64,000 bases of DNA from Desulfatitalea alkaliphila. GTDB lineage: Bacteria > Desulfobacterota > Desulfobacteria > Desulfobacterales > Desulfosarcinaceae. The notes under the pieces are model-generated. The model saw only the letters and a list, made by a program, of their open reading frames with translations, searched no databases and was not told the DNA's origin. The position numbers and the translations under genes were made by a program. Positions 57,599-61,836 of this stretch are shown here, piece after piece. Location: the NCBI RefSeq assembly GCF_022968795.1, contig NZ_JALJRB010000009.1, forward strand, positions 62,001 to 126,000, written 5' to 3'. Within the stretch, counting starts at the first letter, position 1; every line of letters starts with the position of its first letter.

Positions 57599-59122
57599 AT
57601 GCAAGAGATGGTCAAAACCCTCCAGCGGCAGGTGGCCGACCTCCATCTGCGTTTGGCCGAAATGGCGGCGCTGCAACAGCGGTGCGACGCGGCCGAGGCG
57701 GCCCTGGCGGAGCTGACGCACAGCACCCGCGTGCTGGGTGACAGTGCGCCCTTCGGGATATTCACCATCGATCCAACGGGCCGCATCACCGGCATCAACC
57801 GCCGGATGCGGAATCTCTTGTCTTGGCCGGGCGGCAAGGACCCCACGGGTGTCAACCTCCGGGAAATAGAGCCGATCACTGCGGCCGGCGTGGACAAGGA
57901 TTTCCAGCGCTGCCTGGAGCGCAGGCATGCGGTTCTGCGGGATTGTGAGTGCCTGGACCACAACGGCAGTTGCCTCAAGCTCCGCTTTCATTTGAGCCCC
58001 ATCTCCGATGATGGCGATGCGGTGCACGGCGTGATCGCCTTTGTGGAGAACCAGACCCATCTGCGGCAAGCCCAGGAGGCCGCCCAGGAGAGTGAGCAGC
58101 GTTACCGTTTGTTGTTCAAATCGTCGCCCATCGCCATGCTGGAAAGGGATGCCTCGGCGCTCAAACAAACACTGGAACAACTGCGCCTGTCGGGCATTGA
58201 CGACCTGCAGGGCTATCTTCGGGACCGACCGGAAGCCGTGGTCCGCTTGATGGATCTGGTGACCACCACCGATTGTAATGATGCCTTCATTGCCCTGGTG
58301 GGCGTTCAGGACAAGACGGCGTTGATGGCCGCCCTGTCCCGGATGACCCAGGAGGGGGCCATGCAGGAGCTGGTGCGGGAAACGGTGGCGGCCGTTGCCG
58401 AGGGCCGCGTGCCGCCCGAAAGGGAGATCGCCCTCAAAACAGTACAGGGAGAAACCCGGCATGTGATCGCCCGGGCCATGGTGTTGGCCGGCCATGAAGA
58501 CACCATGGCGCGGGTCGTGGTTTCCCTGGTGGACATCACTTCCCGCATGGCGGCCGAGGCGGCTTTGCGCGCCAGCGAGGAGCGACTGCGCAAACAGGCC
58601 TTGCGGGACAACCTCACCGGGCTTTTCAATCAGCGTCACCTGCACGCTTCCCTGCCCTTGCTGCTGCAATCGGCACGGGCACGCCAGGCGCCCCTTTCAC
58701 TGCTGTTCATGGATTTGGACAACTTCAAATCGGTTGTCGACGCCCACGGCCATCTCAATGGCAGCCGGGCCATTCAGGAAGTGGCGGCCACCATCCAAAG
58801 CACCATCGCACCACCGGCCTACGCCGTGGCCTATGCGGGGGATGAATTCGTGGTGGTGCTGCCCGATTGTGAGCAAGGGACCGCCCTGGCCAAGGCCGGG
58901 GAGATCCAAGCCTTGATTCAAGAGACCTTCTACCTGACGCGCCAGGGCCTGGCCGTACATCTGCAAGCCAGTTGCGGCGTGGCCACCTTTCCGCATCACG
59001 CCGACACCCCGGAGTGCTTGTTGACCGCCGCCGACACGGCGCTGTTCAAGGTCAAAGGCACCGGCAAAGGCGCCGTGGCCCCCTACGCCGCCGACGCCCC
59101 GCCGGTCTGCGCCGGCCCCTGA
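57599..59122 (+). CDS. PAS-GGDEF diguanylate cyclase
   Basis: 507 residues: an N-terminal coiled coil (1-40), a PAS domain (about 45-150), a second PAS-like region (about 160-335) and GGDEF (about 345-500) starting with LRDNLTGLFNQRH. The signature reads YAGDEF (AGDEF at 413-417), a variant known from active cyclases, and MDLDNFKSV is intact. It would make c-di-GMP in the cytoplasm. No inhibitory RxxD site upstream of AGDEF was noted. Confidence 0.9.
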   Translation: MQEMVKTLQRQVADLHLRLAEMAALQQRCDAAEAALAELTHSTRVLGDSAPFGIFTIDPTGRITGINRRMRNLLSWPGGKDPTGVNLREIEPITAAGVDKDFQRCLERRHAVLRDCECLDHNGSCLKLRFHLSPISDDGDAVHGVIAFVENQTHLRQAQEAAQESEQRYRLLFKSSPIAMLERDASALKQTLEQLRLSGIDDLQGYLRDRPEAVVRLMDLVTTTDCNDAFIALVGVQDKTALMAALSRMTQEGAMQELVRETVAAVAEGRVPPEREIALKTVQGETRHVIARAMVLAGHEDTMARVVVSLVDITSRMAAEAALRASEERLRKQALRDNLTGLFNQRHLHASLPLLLQSARARQAPLSLLFMDLDNFKSVVDAHGHLNGSRAIQEVAATIQSTIAPPAYAVAYAGDEFVVVLPDCEQGTALAKAGEIQALIQETFYLTRQGLAVHLQASCGVATFPHHADTPECLLTAADTALFKVKGTGKGAVAPYAADAPPVCAGP

Positions 59123-59150: not shown

Positions 59151-60788
59151 TCAGCTTTCCAGAATCTTGCGCGCCAATGCGTCGTTGGCATCGCCGCAGT
59201 GGGCGATACCGGTTTCCCGCGCCGTCTCCCGGTTGGCGGCGAACAGATCGTTGCGATGCAGCTGGTCGATGGTGAATTTGCGTGCACCGGCCATCAACTG
59301 CTGCAAGCCGCAGGAGAGTTTGTCGGCCAGCGTCCAGAAAGCCATGGCGCCATAGGGGATGTGTTTCATCTCGTCTTTGCCCACCTTCTTTTCGACGTCG
59401 TAGTAGCAGGCAAAAATTTCTTCGGCGGAACCGCCGATATCCCCCACGGTCCTGGGCAGTCGATCCCAGTTGCCGCTGACCGCCGCTTTGCGCTCGGGAT
59501 TGAGCGCCCCTTCGATATTGGCCCCAAGGAATCCGGGGATCATCACCGCACGGCCCATGCATACCAATTTGGTGTAGGGCGCGCCCAGGGCCAGGGCTTT
59601 GAAGATGCTGTCCTCCAGCGCAAAACCGCCGGCAAAAGACAGGTCGACCACCTGCTCGCCCTTGGCCGCCAAATAAGCGGCGTATTGGTGGGCTTTGGCG
59701 TGCAGCAGGATCGACGGCACACCCCAGCTCTGCATCATGTTCCAGGGGCTCATGCCGGTGCCGCCGCCCGAGCCGTCGATGGTCAGCAGGTCCAGCTTGG
59801 CGTCGGTGGCGAACTTGATGGCCATGGCCAGTTCCTCCATGCCGTAGGAACCGGTTTTCAGGGAGATGCGTTTGAAACCCAGGCTGCGCAGGTAGGCCAC
59901 GCTCTTCATGAAGTCCTCGCGCACCAAGTCGACGCGGCTGAGCTGGGTGCCCCCCAGGCGGCTGTGGCGGGCGAAGGAGCGGATGGCCCCCTTTTCAAAG
60001 GCTTGCTGTACCTCGGGCAACTCGGGATTGGGATCCACCACATAGCCGCGCTTTTTCAGGAATAGGGCGTAATCGATGCTGGTCACCTGGATCTCGCCGC
60101 CGATGTCCTTGGCGCCCTGGCCCCATTTGAGTTCGATGATGCACTTGTCGCCGTACTTCTCGGCCACATAAGCGGCCACGCCGTTGCGGGTGTCCTCCAC
60201 GTTCATCTGCACGATGATGGCCCCGTAGCCGTCGAAATAGCGCAGGTAGGTATCGATGCGCCGATCCAGCTCGGGCGCCTTGGCGATCTTGCCGTTGCGG
60301 ATTTCCGAGTCGCGGTCCACGCCCACCACGTTTTCACCGATGACGATGGGAATGCCCACCAGGGCGCCGCCGATGGCAAAAGCATCCCAATACTTGGCGG
60401 CCACGAAGGTCGACCCCAGGGCGCCGGTCATCAAGGGGATACGGGCCTTGGTTTTTACCTCCCGGCCGAACTCGGTGGTCAGGTCCACATTGGGAAAGAT
60501 GCAGTCGTCCGGGTCGTTGGAGAGGCGGCCGTCGATGCCGTGGGCGCCGTAGGCGTACCCTTGAATGCGCAGGGCGTTGTAGGAGACCCCGACATGGGTG
60601 GTGTTGTTGGCACCGGCGGTGACGATGCCGAAGTCGCGGGGATAGAGCAATTTCCGGCCCACCAGGCTCGAGAGCCAGGTTTCACACTTGCCTTCGCAAT
60701 CGGCCCGGCACAGGGTGCACAGCCCCGATTCGGCCGCGTTGCCGCGATTGACGGTGCCCAAGACATCGTTTCTTTTGTCAAAACGCAT
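59151..60788 (-). CDS. FMN-binding glutamate synthase family protein
   Basis: 545 residues. The N-terminus carries four closely spaced Cys (LCTLCRADCEGKCETW, residues about 22-36) of a metal or Fe-S site. The rest is the TIM barrel of the glutamate synthase central/FMN domain (LMTGALGSTFVAAKYW, ELKWGQGAKDIGGEI, LDLLTIDGSGGGTGMSPW, DLSFAGGFALEDSIFKALALGA). It would form glutamate from 2-oxoglutarate with other subunits, but an exact role is not shown. The ATG at 60788 has AAAGGAG upstream, and a GTG three codons earlier is less likely. It lies behind an attenuated leader. Confidence 0.9.
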   Translation of the reverse strand: MRFDKRNDVLGTVNRGNAAESGLCTLCRADCEGKCETWLSSLVGRKLLYPRDFGIVTAGANNTTHVGVSYNALRIQGYAYGAHGIDGRLSNDPDDCIFPNVDLTTEFGREVKTKARIPLMTGALGSTFVAAKYWDAFAIGGALVGIPIVIGENVVGVDRDSEIRNGKIAKAPELDRRIDTYLRYFDGYGAIIVQMNVEDTRNGVAAYVAEKYGDKCIIELKWGQGAKDIGGEIQVTSIDYALFLKKRGYVVDPNPELPEVQQAFEKGAIRSFARHSRLGGTQLSRVDLVREDFMKSVAYLRSLGFKRISLKTGSYGMEELAMAIKFATDAKLDLLTIDGSGGGTGMSPWNMMQSWGVPSILLHAKAHQYAAYLAAKGEQVVDLSFAGGFALEDSIFKALALGAPYTKLVCMGRAVMIPGFLGANIEGALNPERKAAVSGNWDRLPRTVGDIGGSAEEIFACYYDVEKKVGKDEMKHIPYGAMAFWTLADKLSCGLQQLMAGARKFTIDQLHRNDLFAANRETARETGIAHCGDANDALARKILES

Positions 60789-60884
60789 GGTTCTCACTCC
60801 TTTGAACGATGGTAACCCGGCAATATCCGGGTGGGTCCGCAGCCCCGATCATCGGAAGGAGAGGAGACAGGCGATTCGCGCCTC

Positions 60885-60902
60885 GGACGCAAAAAGGCGT
60901 CC
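60885..60902 (-). promoter_or_regulatory. Alternative hairpin competing with the terminator
   Basis: On the minus strand GGACGC, CTTTTT, GCGTCC folds as a 6-bp stem with a six-base loop. Its 5' arm is the same sequence as the terminator's 3' arm, so the two structures exclude each other. Confidence 0.45.
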
Positions 60903-60934
60903 GCTCCAACTGGATGGGAGCCGCAGACGCCTTT
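60891..60934 (-). terminator. Intrinsic terminator (attenuator) in the glutamate synthase leader
   Basis: On the minus strand AAAGGCGTC (60926-60934) pairs with GACGCCTTT (60893-60901), a perfect 9-bp stem, with an inner GCTCC/GGAGC stem (60917-60921 with 60903-60907). The T-run is 60891-60895. It is about 100 bases before the coding start, so it would stop transcription before the gene. Confidence 0.75.
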
Positions 60935-60980
60935 GTCTGAGTCTGTTTTTGGATTTTTCGTTCCGCACAGCCCTGTGCGG
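60924..60980 (-). promoter_or_regulatory. Dual hexaloop ANTAR-binding RNA motif (P1 and P2)
   Basis: On the minus strand, P1 (60963-60980) is CCGCAC, loop AGGGCT, GTGCGG. P2 (60924-60939) is CAGAC, loop AAAGGC, GTCTG. Both loops have six bases with A in position 1 and G in position 4, the recognition features of ANTAR-binding RNA. P2 includes the whole 5' arm of the terminator, so stabilising P2 would prevent termination. The linker is 23 bases. Confidence 0.75.
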
Positions 60981-61038
60981 GAAGGATGCGCTTGAGCCGC
61001 TGTCGCCGTTGACATCGCGATGCGCACGAAACCTTAAC

Positions 61039-61067
61039 TAAATAAAAAACCGGTCTGTTTTTGTCAA
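61039..61067 (-). promoter_or_regulatory. Promoter of the glutamate synthase leader
   Basis: On the minus strand a perfect TTGACA (61062-61067), 17 bases, then TATTTA (61039-61044). The start is near 61032, giving a leader of about 244 bases before the ATG at 60788. It lies after the stop of the GAF-ANTAR gene, so the synthase can be expressed independently. Confidence 0.6.
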
Positions 61068-61110
61068 CAAAAAATTGTTTTGTGCCGGCCGTACCGGCCT
61101 GCTCGCCGGT

Positions 61111-61836
61111 TTACACGCCTCTGCTTTGCAGCTCGGAGGAGAGCAGGACCGCTTCGGCCACCTGCCGCATGGAGCGCCGTGTGTCCATGCTCTGCTTTTG
61201 CAGCCAACGGTAGGCTTCCACGCCCTGCAGCCCCGTGCGTTGCATCACGATCTCCTTGGCCCGCTCGACCAGCTTGCGGGTTTCCAGTTCCTCCTGGATG
61301 ACGCGCGTTTTGACCATCAATTCAGTGTTCAGGATGGCCACCGCCGCCTGGTTGGCAACGGCGGTGAGCAGGTTCACCTCGGTGTCCGAAAAAGCATAGG
61401 GCGCGCAGGTAAAGCAGTTGAGCACCCCGATCACCTTGTCGTCCTTGAGCAGCAAAGGAACGCCCACCATGGAGACCAGACCGAGATTGCGGGCCATCTC
61501 CTTTTCCTTGAAGCGGCGGTGGCGCAACACATTTTTGATGATCAGGGGCTTTTTAGTGGTGGCCACATGGCCGACCACCCCTTCGTTCAGCGCCAGGCTG
61601 CGGTCCTTCACATATTCGGGGGCGATGGACTGGGTCGCCTTGAGGCGGATGACCGGCGGGGACTGTCCTTCATCGATGAGCCATAGGGAGCAGATGGCCA
61701 CGCCGGTCACTTTGGCCGTCACCATCACGATCAGTTTGAGCAGCTCCTCCAGATACAAATCGGAGGTGATGGCGTGGCTGATGTCGGTCAGCGCCTTGAT
61801 GTAGTCGTCGTAGGTTCGGAATTCGGTCTTTTCCAT
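61111..61836 (-). CDS. GAF-ANTAR transcription antiterminator
   Basis: 241 residues: a GAF domain (about 20-170; SLWLIDEGQSPPVIRLKAT, GVVGHVATTKKPLIIKNV, MVGVPLLLKDDKVIGVLNCF) and a C-terminal ANTAR domain (about 182-233; ETRKLVERAKEIVMQRTG, AYRWLQKQSMDTRRSMRQVA). ANTAR domains bind pairs of hexaloop hairpins in nascent RNA and block terminators, as in AmiR, NasR and EutV. Here the sensory input is a GAF domain with no receiver, so the protein is one-component. GGAG lies before the ATG. The next structure downstream on the same strand is a matching target leader, so the pair forms one regulatory unit. Confidence 0.9.
   Translation of the reverse strand: MEKTEFRTYDDYIKALTDISHAITSDLYLEELLKLIVMVTAKVTGVAICSLWLIDEGQSPPVIRLKATQSIAPEYVKDRSLALNEGVVGHVATTKKPLIIKNVLRHRRFKEKEMARNLGLVSMVGVPLLLKDDKVIGVLNCFTCAPYAFSDTEVNLLTAVANQAAVAILNTELMVKTRVIQEELETRKLVERAKEIVMQRTGLQGVEAYRWLQKQSMDTRRSMRQVAEAVLLSSELQSRGV

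What the first reader, a model, noticed from the sequence alone, without database searches (positions are those of the whole stretch)
60789..61836. GAF-ANTAR antiterminator with its own dual-hexaloop target upstream of an FMN-binding glutamate synthase
Seen: the minus-strand leader has two hairpins, CCGCAC-AGGGCT-GTGCGG (60963-60980) and CAGAC-AAAGGC-GTCTG (60924-60939), each with a six-base loop with A1 and G4. The second shares its whole 3' part (AAAGGCGTC) with the 5' arm of a 9-bp intrinsic terminator ending in T5 (60891-60934). A TTGACA-N17-TATTTA promoter precedes the leader, and a GAF-ANTAR gene lies just upstream on the same strand. Known: ANTAR proteins stabilise such pairs of hairpins to block terminators (AmiR, NasR and EutV systems). 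Inferred: the GAF domain senses a nitrogen-related or other metabolite and switches the synthase-like gene on as a one-component RNA switch. A GAF-only ANTAR protein next to its target leader at a glutamate synthase gene appears not to be a standard example.
Basis: partly seen in the sequence, partly recalled or inferred. Interest (0 to 1): 0.9.

Follow-up and report, generated by a model that had tools for sequence, protein, structure and literature searches.

The report
One-component RNA switch before glutamate-synthase-type gene
A sulfate-reducing bacterium (genus Desulfatitalea) carries a small sensor protein that almost certainly grabs hairpins in the start of a neighbouring gene's RNA to stop transcription from ending early, switching on a glutamate-synthase-type enzyme; the mechanism is a known kind, but this sensor type with its matching targets, conserved across much of a bacterial phylum, appears to be undescribed.

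Summary
The leader of the 545-aa Glu_synthase-family gene holds two hexaloop hairpins (A1, G4), the second overlapping an intrinsic terminator. A GAF-ANTAR gene, the only ANTAR gene in the assembly, lies just upstream.

Comparative evidence strongly supports ANTAR antitermination. A covariance model finds the element in 28 of 28 relatives with the GAF-ANTAR orthologue and 0 of 12 without (those have no ANTAR gene). Stems covary; A1 and G4 stay fixed while other loop positions drift. Where the two genes are separated, the element stays with the synthase gene. Of 80 orthologue neighbourhoods, all 49 with an identified target gene carry the element; the 28 without it have none. Targets are mainly Glu_synthase-family genes, sometimes GltB, glutamate dehydrogenase, or a FlpD-MetV-MetF operon.

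Ligand, direction of regulation and enzyme activity are untested. The nearest GAF domains are EI-Ntr and NifA (glutamine and 2-oxoglutarate sensors). ANTAR targets at glutamate synthase genes were predicted in 2012 in Desulfotomaculum. This is a new variant of a known kind: a one-component GAF-ANTAR with matching targets, longer linkers and a triple-hexaloop leader.

The parts
61111..61836 (-). GAF-ANTAR one-component regulator, 241 aa
   Evidence: Pfam GAF and ANTAR over cut-off; the only ANTAR match in the assembly; AlphaFold model: GAF, long signalling helix 151-201, ANTAR helices, pLDDT 82.8
61333..61752 (-). GAF domain (aa 29-168); nearest solved or named relatives are PtsP (EI-Ntr) and NifA-type GAF domains
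61144..61299 (-). ANTAR domain (aa 180-231); aligned equivalents of EutV RNA contacts R142, K143, K149, M172, R175 invariant in 25 orthologues, K147 and Y164 positions mostly conserved
61039..61067 (-). sigma70-type promoter TTGACA-N17-TATTTA for the leader
   Evidence: sequence; TTGAC box at the corresponding place in relatives
61001..61014 (-).
   Evidence: found at the corresponding place in all nine Desulfatitalea-group leaders examined and three others, with paired stem changes; weak on its own here, -2.3 kcal/mol
60963..60980 (-). P1 (middle) hairpin CCGCAC-AGGGCT-GTGCGG
   Evidence: -10.4 kcal/mol
60924..60939 (-). P2 hairpin CAGAC-AAAGGC-GTCTG (antiterminator half)
   Evidence: -4.9 kcal/mol
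60891..60934 (-). intrinsic terminator with T5; its 5' arm is the loop and 3' arm of P2
   Evidence: -21.2 kcal/mol; covariation
60797..60803 (-). ribosome-binding site AAAGGAG
   Evidence: sequence
59151..60788 (-). target gene: 545-aa Glu_synthase-family protein with an N-terminal cysteine motif and a predicted FMN-type TIM barrel
   Evidence: Pfam Glu_synthase 54.3 bits over aa 291-417; invariant cysteines 24, 27, 31, 35 in 20 homologues; distant match to GltB 7mfm; Foldseek hits are FMN TIM-barrel enzymes, model confidence low

Best explanation
The GAF-ANTAR protein is a one-component, ligand-responsive antiterminator acting on the leader of the glutamate-synthase-type gene next to it. Without signal, RNA polymerase stops at the terminator 60934-60891. 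When the GAF domain is switched, the dimeric ANTAR domains hold the hexaloop hairpins (P2 plus P0 and/or P1). Holding P2 hides the terminator's 5' arm, so the polymerase reads on into the gene. Shown here: the anatomy, the conservation, the covariation, the co-occurrence of protein and element, and the kinds of target gene. Inferred: binding, antitermination and its direction, the ligand (most likely a nitrogen-status metabolite such as 2-oxoglutarate or glutamine), and that the enzyme makes glutamate.
For: Leader anatomy. P1 and terminator covary: 91.2% of cells paired against 84.7% shuffled and at most 61.4% slid; 34 double-change cells against 11.6 shuffled; same result in 59 model-fitted matches. 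In 52 leaders A1 is 52/52 and G4 52/52 in P1, and 51/52 and 52/52 in P2, while loop positions 3, 5 and 6 of P1 vary. Element and orthologue: 28/28 against 0/12, and the 12 have no ANTAR gene at all. Phylum sample of 198: 36 both, 15 protein only, 8 element only, 139 neither; 7 of the 8 'element only' genomes have another ANTAR protein. When the genes are apart, the element stays with the synthase gene (G003, G010, G026, G028, G033). Of 80 neighbourhoods, 49 of 52 elements precede an identified target gene and 0 of 28 element-less ones do. EutV RNA contacts conserved. The ANTAR mechanism is established for EutV and NasR (PMC3369931, PMC8934654, PMC7496416).
Against: No binding or termination experiment exists. 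The P1-P2 linker here is about 24 nt (median 17 in relatives, assuming 5-bp stems), whereas EutV fails when its 5-12 nt linker is stretched to 14 nt (PMC3369931) or by 20 nt (PMC8934654). The middle loop can close to a tetraloop. EutV contacts E160, R168, N173 and R177 are not kept as such. In G011 the protein and its own element are present but the synthase-gene copy elsewhere has none. 15 of 51 orthologue-bearing genomes in the phylum sample give no model hit (distant genomes, strict filters).
Confidence: 0.87

Rival explanations
1. The hairpin-terminator is simply the 3' terminator of the GAF-ANTAR gene and the synthase gene is expressed independently; the hexaloops are incidental.
For: The element does lie just 3' of the GAF-ANTAR gene in most genomes.
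Against: In five genomes where the genes are apart the element goes with the synthase gene; a promoter precedes it; other targets elsewhere in the genome carry it; covariation and fixed A1/G4 in P1 lie outside the terminator.
Confidence: 0.03
2. The leader is an attenuator that responds to something other than the ANTAR protein, such as a metabolite-binding riboswitch or a leader-peptide attenuator.
For: Terminator plus alternative upstream structure is common to all attenuators.
Against: No Rfam family matches; the element is found almost only where an ANTAR protein is (43 of 44 genomes in the phylum sample); hexaloops with fixed A1 and G4 are the ANTAR signature (PMC3369931).
Confidence: 0.04
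3. The protein binds the leader but acts through translation or RNA stability, or represses instead of activating.
For: Ramesh et al. 2012 note ANTAR-type RNA hits that overlap ribosome-binding sites; direction of control is not shown here.
Against: The terminator with its T-run is kept in nearly all leaders and overlaps P2 exactly, and the start codon lies some 100 nt further on.
Confidence: 0.06
4. Antitermination is right, but the GAF domain senses not nitrogen status but another signal (cyclic nucleotide, redox, partner protein).
For: Foldseek also matches cNMP-binding and phytochrome GAF domains; targets in some relatives are FlpD-MetV-MetF operons of C1 metabolism.
Against: Closest sequences are EI-Ntr (PtsP) and NifA GAF domains, reported to bind glutamine and 2-oxoglutarate (PMC4848567, PMC9866876); most targets are glutamate-forming or Glu_synthase-family genes.
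Confidence: 0.4

Closest known systems
NasR (NIT-ANTAR, Klebsiella oxytoca) and nasF leader
   Same: One-component metabolite sensor fused to ANTAR; antitermination through hexaloop hairpins; nitrogen assimilation target
   Different: Sensor is a NIT domain for nitrate, not GAF; different target; no third hairpin described in the papers read
EutV/EutW and eut leaders (Enterococcus faecalis)
   Same: Two hexaloops with A1 and G4, second overlapping the terminator; shared RNA-contact residues
   Different: Two-component (receiver-ANTAR plus kinase); linkers 5-12 nt; ethanolamine genes
Predicted ANTAR targets at glutamate synthase genes of Desulfotomaculum reducens and the nitrogen regulon of D. 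acetoxidans (Ramesh et al. 2012, PMC3369931)
   Same: ANTAR-type RNA in front of glutamate synthase genes
   Different: Different phylum; the acting ANTAR protein and its sensor were not assigned to these targets in the text read
PAL (PAS-ANTAR-LOV, Nakamurella multipartita; cited in PMC7496416)
   Same: One-component ANTAR regulator with small sensor domains
   Different: Light-sensing (LOV), not GAF; no nitrogen target mentioned

Membership tests
ANTAR-domain proteins (PF03861) | ANTAR domain over the curated cut-off | tested here: met
   70.9 bits against cut-off 27.3; model shows the C-terminal helices
ANTAR-domain proteins (PF03861) | Residues that contact the hexaloop in EutV | tested here: met
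   R187, K188, K194, M217, R220 invariant in 25 orthologues; R192 and Y209 mostly kept; E160, R168, N173, R177 equivalents changed
ANTAR-domain proteins (PF03861) | Binds RNA hexaloops | not testable with these tools
   needs gel shift
ANTAR target RNA (dual hexaloop antiterminator) | Two hairpins with six-base loops, A at 1 and G at 4 | tested here: met
ANTAR target RNA (dual hexaloop antiterminator) | Second hairpin mutually exclusive with an intrinsic terminator | tested here: met
   P2 loop and 3' arm are the terminator's 5' arm
ANTAR target RNA (dual hexaloop antiterminator) | Stems supported by covariation | tested here: met
   P2 itself hardly varies in its inner three pairs
ANTAR target RNA (dual hexaloop antiterminator) | Short linker (5-12 nt in E. 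faecalis eut; longer ones fail for EutV) | tested here: not met
   about 24 nt in the window, median about 17 nt in relatives; this is a property shown for the EutV system, not for every ANTAR target
One-component GAF regulator | GAF sensor fused to output, no receiver domain | tested here: met
   Pfam hits are GAF and ANTAR only
One-component GAF regulator | Small-molecule binding by the GAF domain | not testable with these tools
   nearest GAFs bind glutamine or 2-oxoglutarate according to PMC4848567 and PMC9866876; a lead only
Glutamate synthase (target enzyme) | Glu_synthase (FMN) domain | tested here: met
   54.3 bits, aa 291-417, partial coverage of the model
Glutamate synthase (target enzyme) | Own glutamine amidotransferase domain, or an NCBIfam equivalog match | tested here: not met
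   no GATase_2 in Pfam, no NCBIfam hit; the genome has a separate full-length GltB candidate and others. It is filed as a Glu_synthase-family protein, not as a proven glutamate synthase

The most novel reading that the evidence does not exclude
In Desulfatitalea and a few other lineages the leader carries three hexaloops, with the common AAYGGC loop upstream (P0) and an extra, divergent middle hairpin. This would be a three-site ANTAR target, in which the extra hexaloop changes cooperativity or lets the protein span a linker that the EutV system cannot tolerate, under a GAF domain that reads 2-oxoglutarate or glutamine: a protein-RNA switch linking nitrogen status directly to glutamate synthesis across Desulfobacterota.
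Probability: 0.35. Interest if true: 0.65.

Novelty: new variant of a known kind. Interest (0 to 1): 0.55.

Why it matters
GAF-ANTAR proteins were named in 2012 as an uncharacterised class, and I found no described target for one. Here is a tractable pair, protein plus leader, in the window genome the only ANTAR gene and the only detectable element, conserved over much of Desulfobacterota, including cultured Desulfosarcina and Desulfobulbus species. It offers a direct way to find a GAF-ANTAR ligand, tests how far the dual-hexaloop model stretches (long linkers, three loops), and suggests that ammonium assimilation in many sulfate reducers is set by transcription attenuation.

Tried and rejected
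Rfam at gathering thresholds gave nothing, so no curated family could be used. The weak further hits in the own genome (E 0.5-3.4) are treated as chance or as the terminator's other strand, so the window genome has one detectable target. AlphaFold of the target enzyme was of low confidence (pLDDT 65.8), so its Foldseek hits only support an FMN-type barrel. The idea that the element is merely the regulator gene's terminator was rejected by the five genomes with separated genes. Mapping of known ligand-binding residues of NifA or EI-Ntr onto this GAF domain was not attempted because those sequences were not at hand. The MFE fold of the whole leader is not unusually stable (z = -1.2), so stability alone is no evidence. 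Supplementary tables of Ramesh et al. 2012 could not be read; they may already list Deltaproteobacterial hits of this kind. The first motif finder required A1 and G4, which biases the loop tallies; the covariance-model hits did not require them, although the model was trained on such leaders.

Full report
What is in the sequence. On the minus strand, a 241-aa GAF-ANTAR gene (61836-61111) is followed by a promoter (TTGACA-N17-TATTTA, 61067-61039), a leader with hexaloop hairpins and an intrinsic terminator (60934-60891), and a 545-aa Glu_synthase-family gene (60788-59151). A scan of both strands of the window for two A..G.. hexaloop hairpins with an overlapping terminator finds only this site, and 12 randomised 64-kb sequences give none. 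P2 alone is worth -4.9 kcal/mol and the terminator -21.2, so the terminator wins unless something holds P2. Rfam has no matching family.

A third hairpin of the same kind, TGTC-AACGGC-GACA, lies at 61014-61001. It recurs at the corresponding place in all nine leaders examined from the window's genus group and in three others (G011, G026, G036), with changing but mostly paired stems. In leaders with only two hairpins the first loop is AAYGGC or one letter away from it. In three-hairpin leaders that loop type sits in P0, and the middle hairpin has a divergent loop that keeps A1 and G4. In 52 elements from the wider set a strict P0 is found only in 4, all of the three-hairpin group, against 0.4% in shuffled sequence. 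In the window itself P0 is short (4 bp) and competes with other folds.

Does it behave like an ANTAR target? On 26 aligned leaders the P1 and terminator pairs form in 91.2% of cells, with more double-change cells than any of 500 shuffles (34 against a mean of 11.6) and far above slid controls. The same holds in 59 further matches, though these were fitted to the model. Loop positions 1 and 4 are fixed while 3, 5 and 6 of P1 vary. P1 lies outside the terminator, so its conservation cannot come from termination. The ANTAR domain keeps the aligned equivalents of EutV Arg142, Lys143, Lys149, Met172 and Arg175 in all 25 orthologues, a basic residue at Lys147 in 24 of 25, and tyrosine or phenylalanine at Tyr164 in 24 of 25; Glu160, Arg168, Asn173 and Arg177 differ.

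Protein and element go together. The window genome has one ANTAR gene and one element by the model (E 5.5e-13; the next, 0.5, is the other strand of the same site). Among 40 relatives, 28 have the orthologue and the same 28 have the element; the 12 without it have neither element nor any ANTAR gene (Fisher 1.8e-10, not corrected for shared ancestry, and the model was trained on members of this set). In a sample of 198 genomes of the phylum, 36 have both, 15 the protein only, 8 the element only and 139 neither; 7 of those 8 have another ANTAR protein.

The element belongs to the target gene. In G003, G010, G026, G028 and G033 the synthase gene is not next to the regulator and still carries the element. 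In G015, G031 and G035, which lack the protein, the synthase leader has no element. In 80 named neighbourhoods from GTDB genomes (Desulfatitalea, Desulfosarcina, Desulfobacula, Desulfobulbus and others), 52 elements were found near the regulator gene: 33 precede the 545-aa type, 12 the variant type (about 53% identical to the first), 1 full-length GltB, 3 FlpD and 3 an unidentified or missing gene; none of the 28 element-less neighbourhoods has any of these genes downstream. Some of those 28 are cut short by the end of the contig. Other targets in relatives are NADP glutamate dehydrogenase (L104, L105, and by similarity L204), GltB of 1520 aa (L106), and a FlpD-MetV-MetF-Glu_synthase-like operon, in G001 behind two elements in tandem.

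How it most likely works. By the established ANTAR mechanism (PMC3369931, PMC8934654, PMC7496416), the protein dimer holds the hexaloops, P2 cannot join the terminator, and transcription continues. The GAF domain's nearest sequences are the GAF domains of EI-Ntr (PtsP) and NifA, reported to bind glutamine and 2-oxoglutarate (PMC4848567, PMC9866876). I therefore favour nitrogen-status sensing, at a little better than even odds; this step is inference. The enzyme is a member of the Glu_synthase family by domain only: it has no amidotransferase domain and no NCBIfam assignment, and the same genome holds a full-length GltB candidate, two larger Glu_synthase proteins and one glutamate dehydrogenase. 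That GDH and GltB replace it behind the same element in other genomes is the best evidence that it serves glutamate formation.

What does not fit neatly. The P1-P2 linker is about 24 nt here and about 17 nt at the median, if both stems count as 5 bp, while EutV tolerates 5-12 nt and fails at 14 or with 20 nt added. Either this protein family spans longer linkers or the extra hairpin helps. G011 has the protein and the element, but no recognised target behind it and no element at its synthase gene.

Novelty. ANTAR targets in front of glutamate synthase genes were predicted in 2012 in Desulfotomaculum reducens, and the same paper says no GAF-ANTAR protein had been characterised. Paper searches found no later description of a GAF-ANTAR target or of ANTAR control in sulfate reducers, within an open-access library only. 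I file it as a new variant of a known kind.

Noticed in passing
L003, L005, L006, L010, L011, L014, L015, L017, L022, L036, L047 (leaders of relatives): A palindrome TYAGT-N3-ACTAA (with variants) lies at a fixed distance (13 bases from the start of TTGAC) and overlaps the -10 box of the synthase promoter; a pattern search over relatives finds it mostly there. It looks like the operator of an unidentified DNA-binding regulator; the window's own promoter lacks it, and G015, without ANTAR, keeps it.
   Followed up: partly
L095 (G001), L096 (G008), L097 (G010), L098 (G027), L214, L221, L226: An operon FlpD/MvhD - MetV - MetF - Glu_synthase-like protein also carries the ANTAR element, in G001 as two elements in tandem: a possible link of C1 (methylene-tetrahydrofolate reductase) genes to the same regulator.
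   Followed up: partly
L213 (G098), L219 (G199), L225 (G151): Genomes with other ANTAR proteins but no GAF-ANTAR orthologue carry the same RNA element before a gene for a secreted-looking protein (signal peptide, then ATPST...), probably a separate ANTAR regulon.
   Followed up: no
L102 (G010:C30) and L103/L109 (G003): In two genus members the GAF-ANTAR gene and the synthase gene are separated (about 7 kb apart in G010, different contigs in G003); this helped assign the element to the target gene.
   Followed up: partly
window 57599-59122: A PAS-GGDEF (diguanylate cyclase) gene converges on the synthase gene; the two stop codons are about 30 bases apart.
   Followed up: no
L186: A contig titled as uncultured Bacteroidales encodes a 72% identical GAF-ANTAR protein, most likely a misbinned Desulfobacterota contig.
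   Followed up: no
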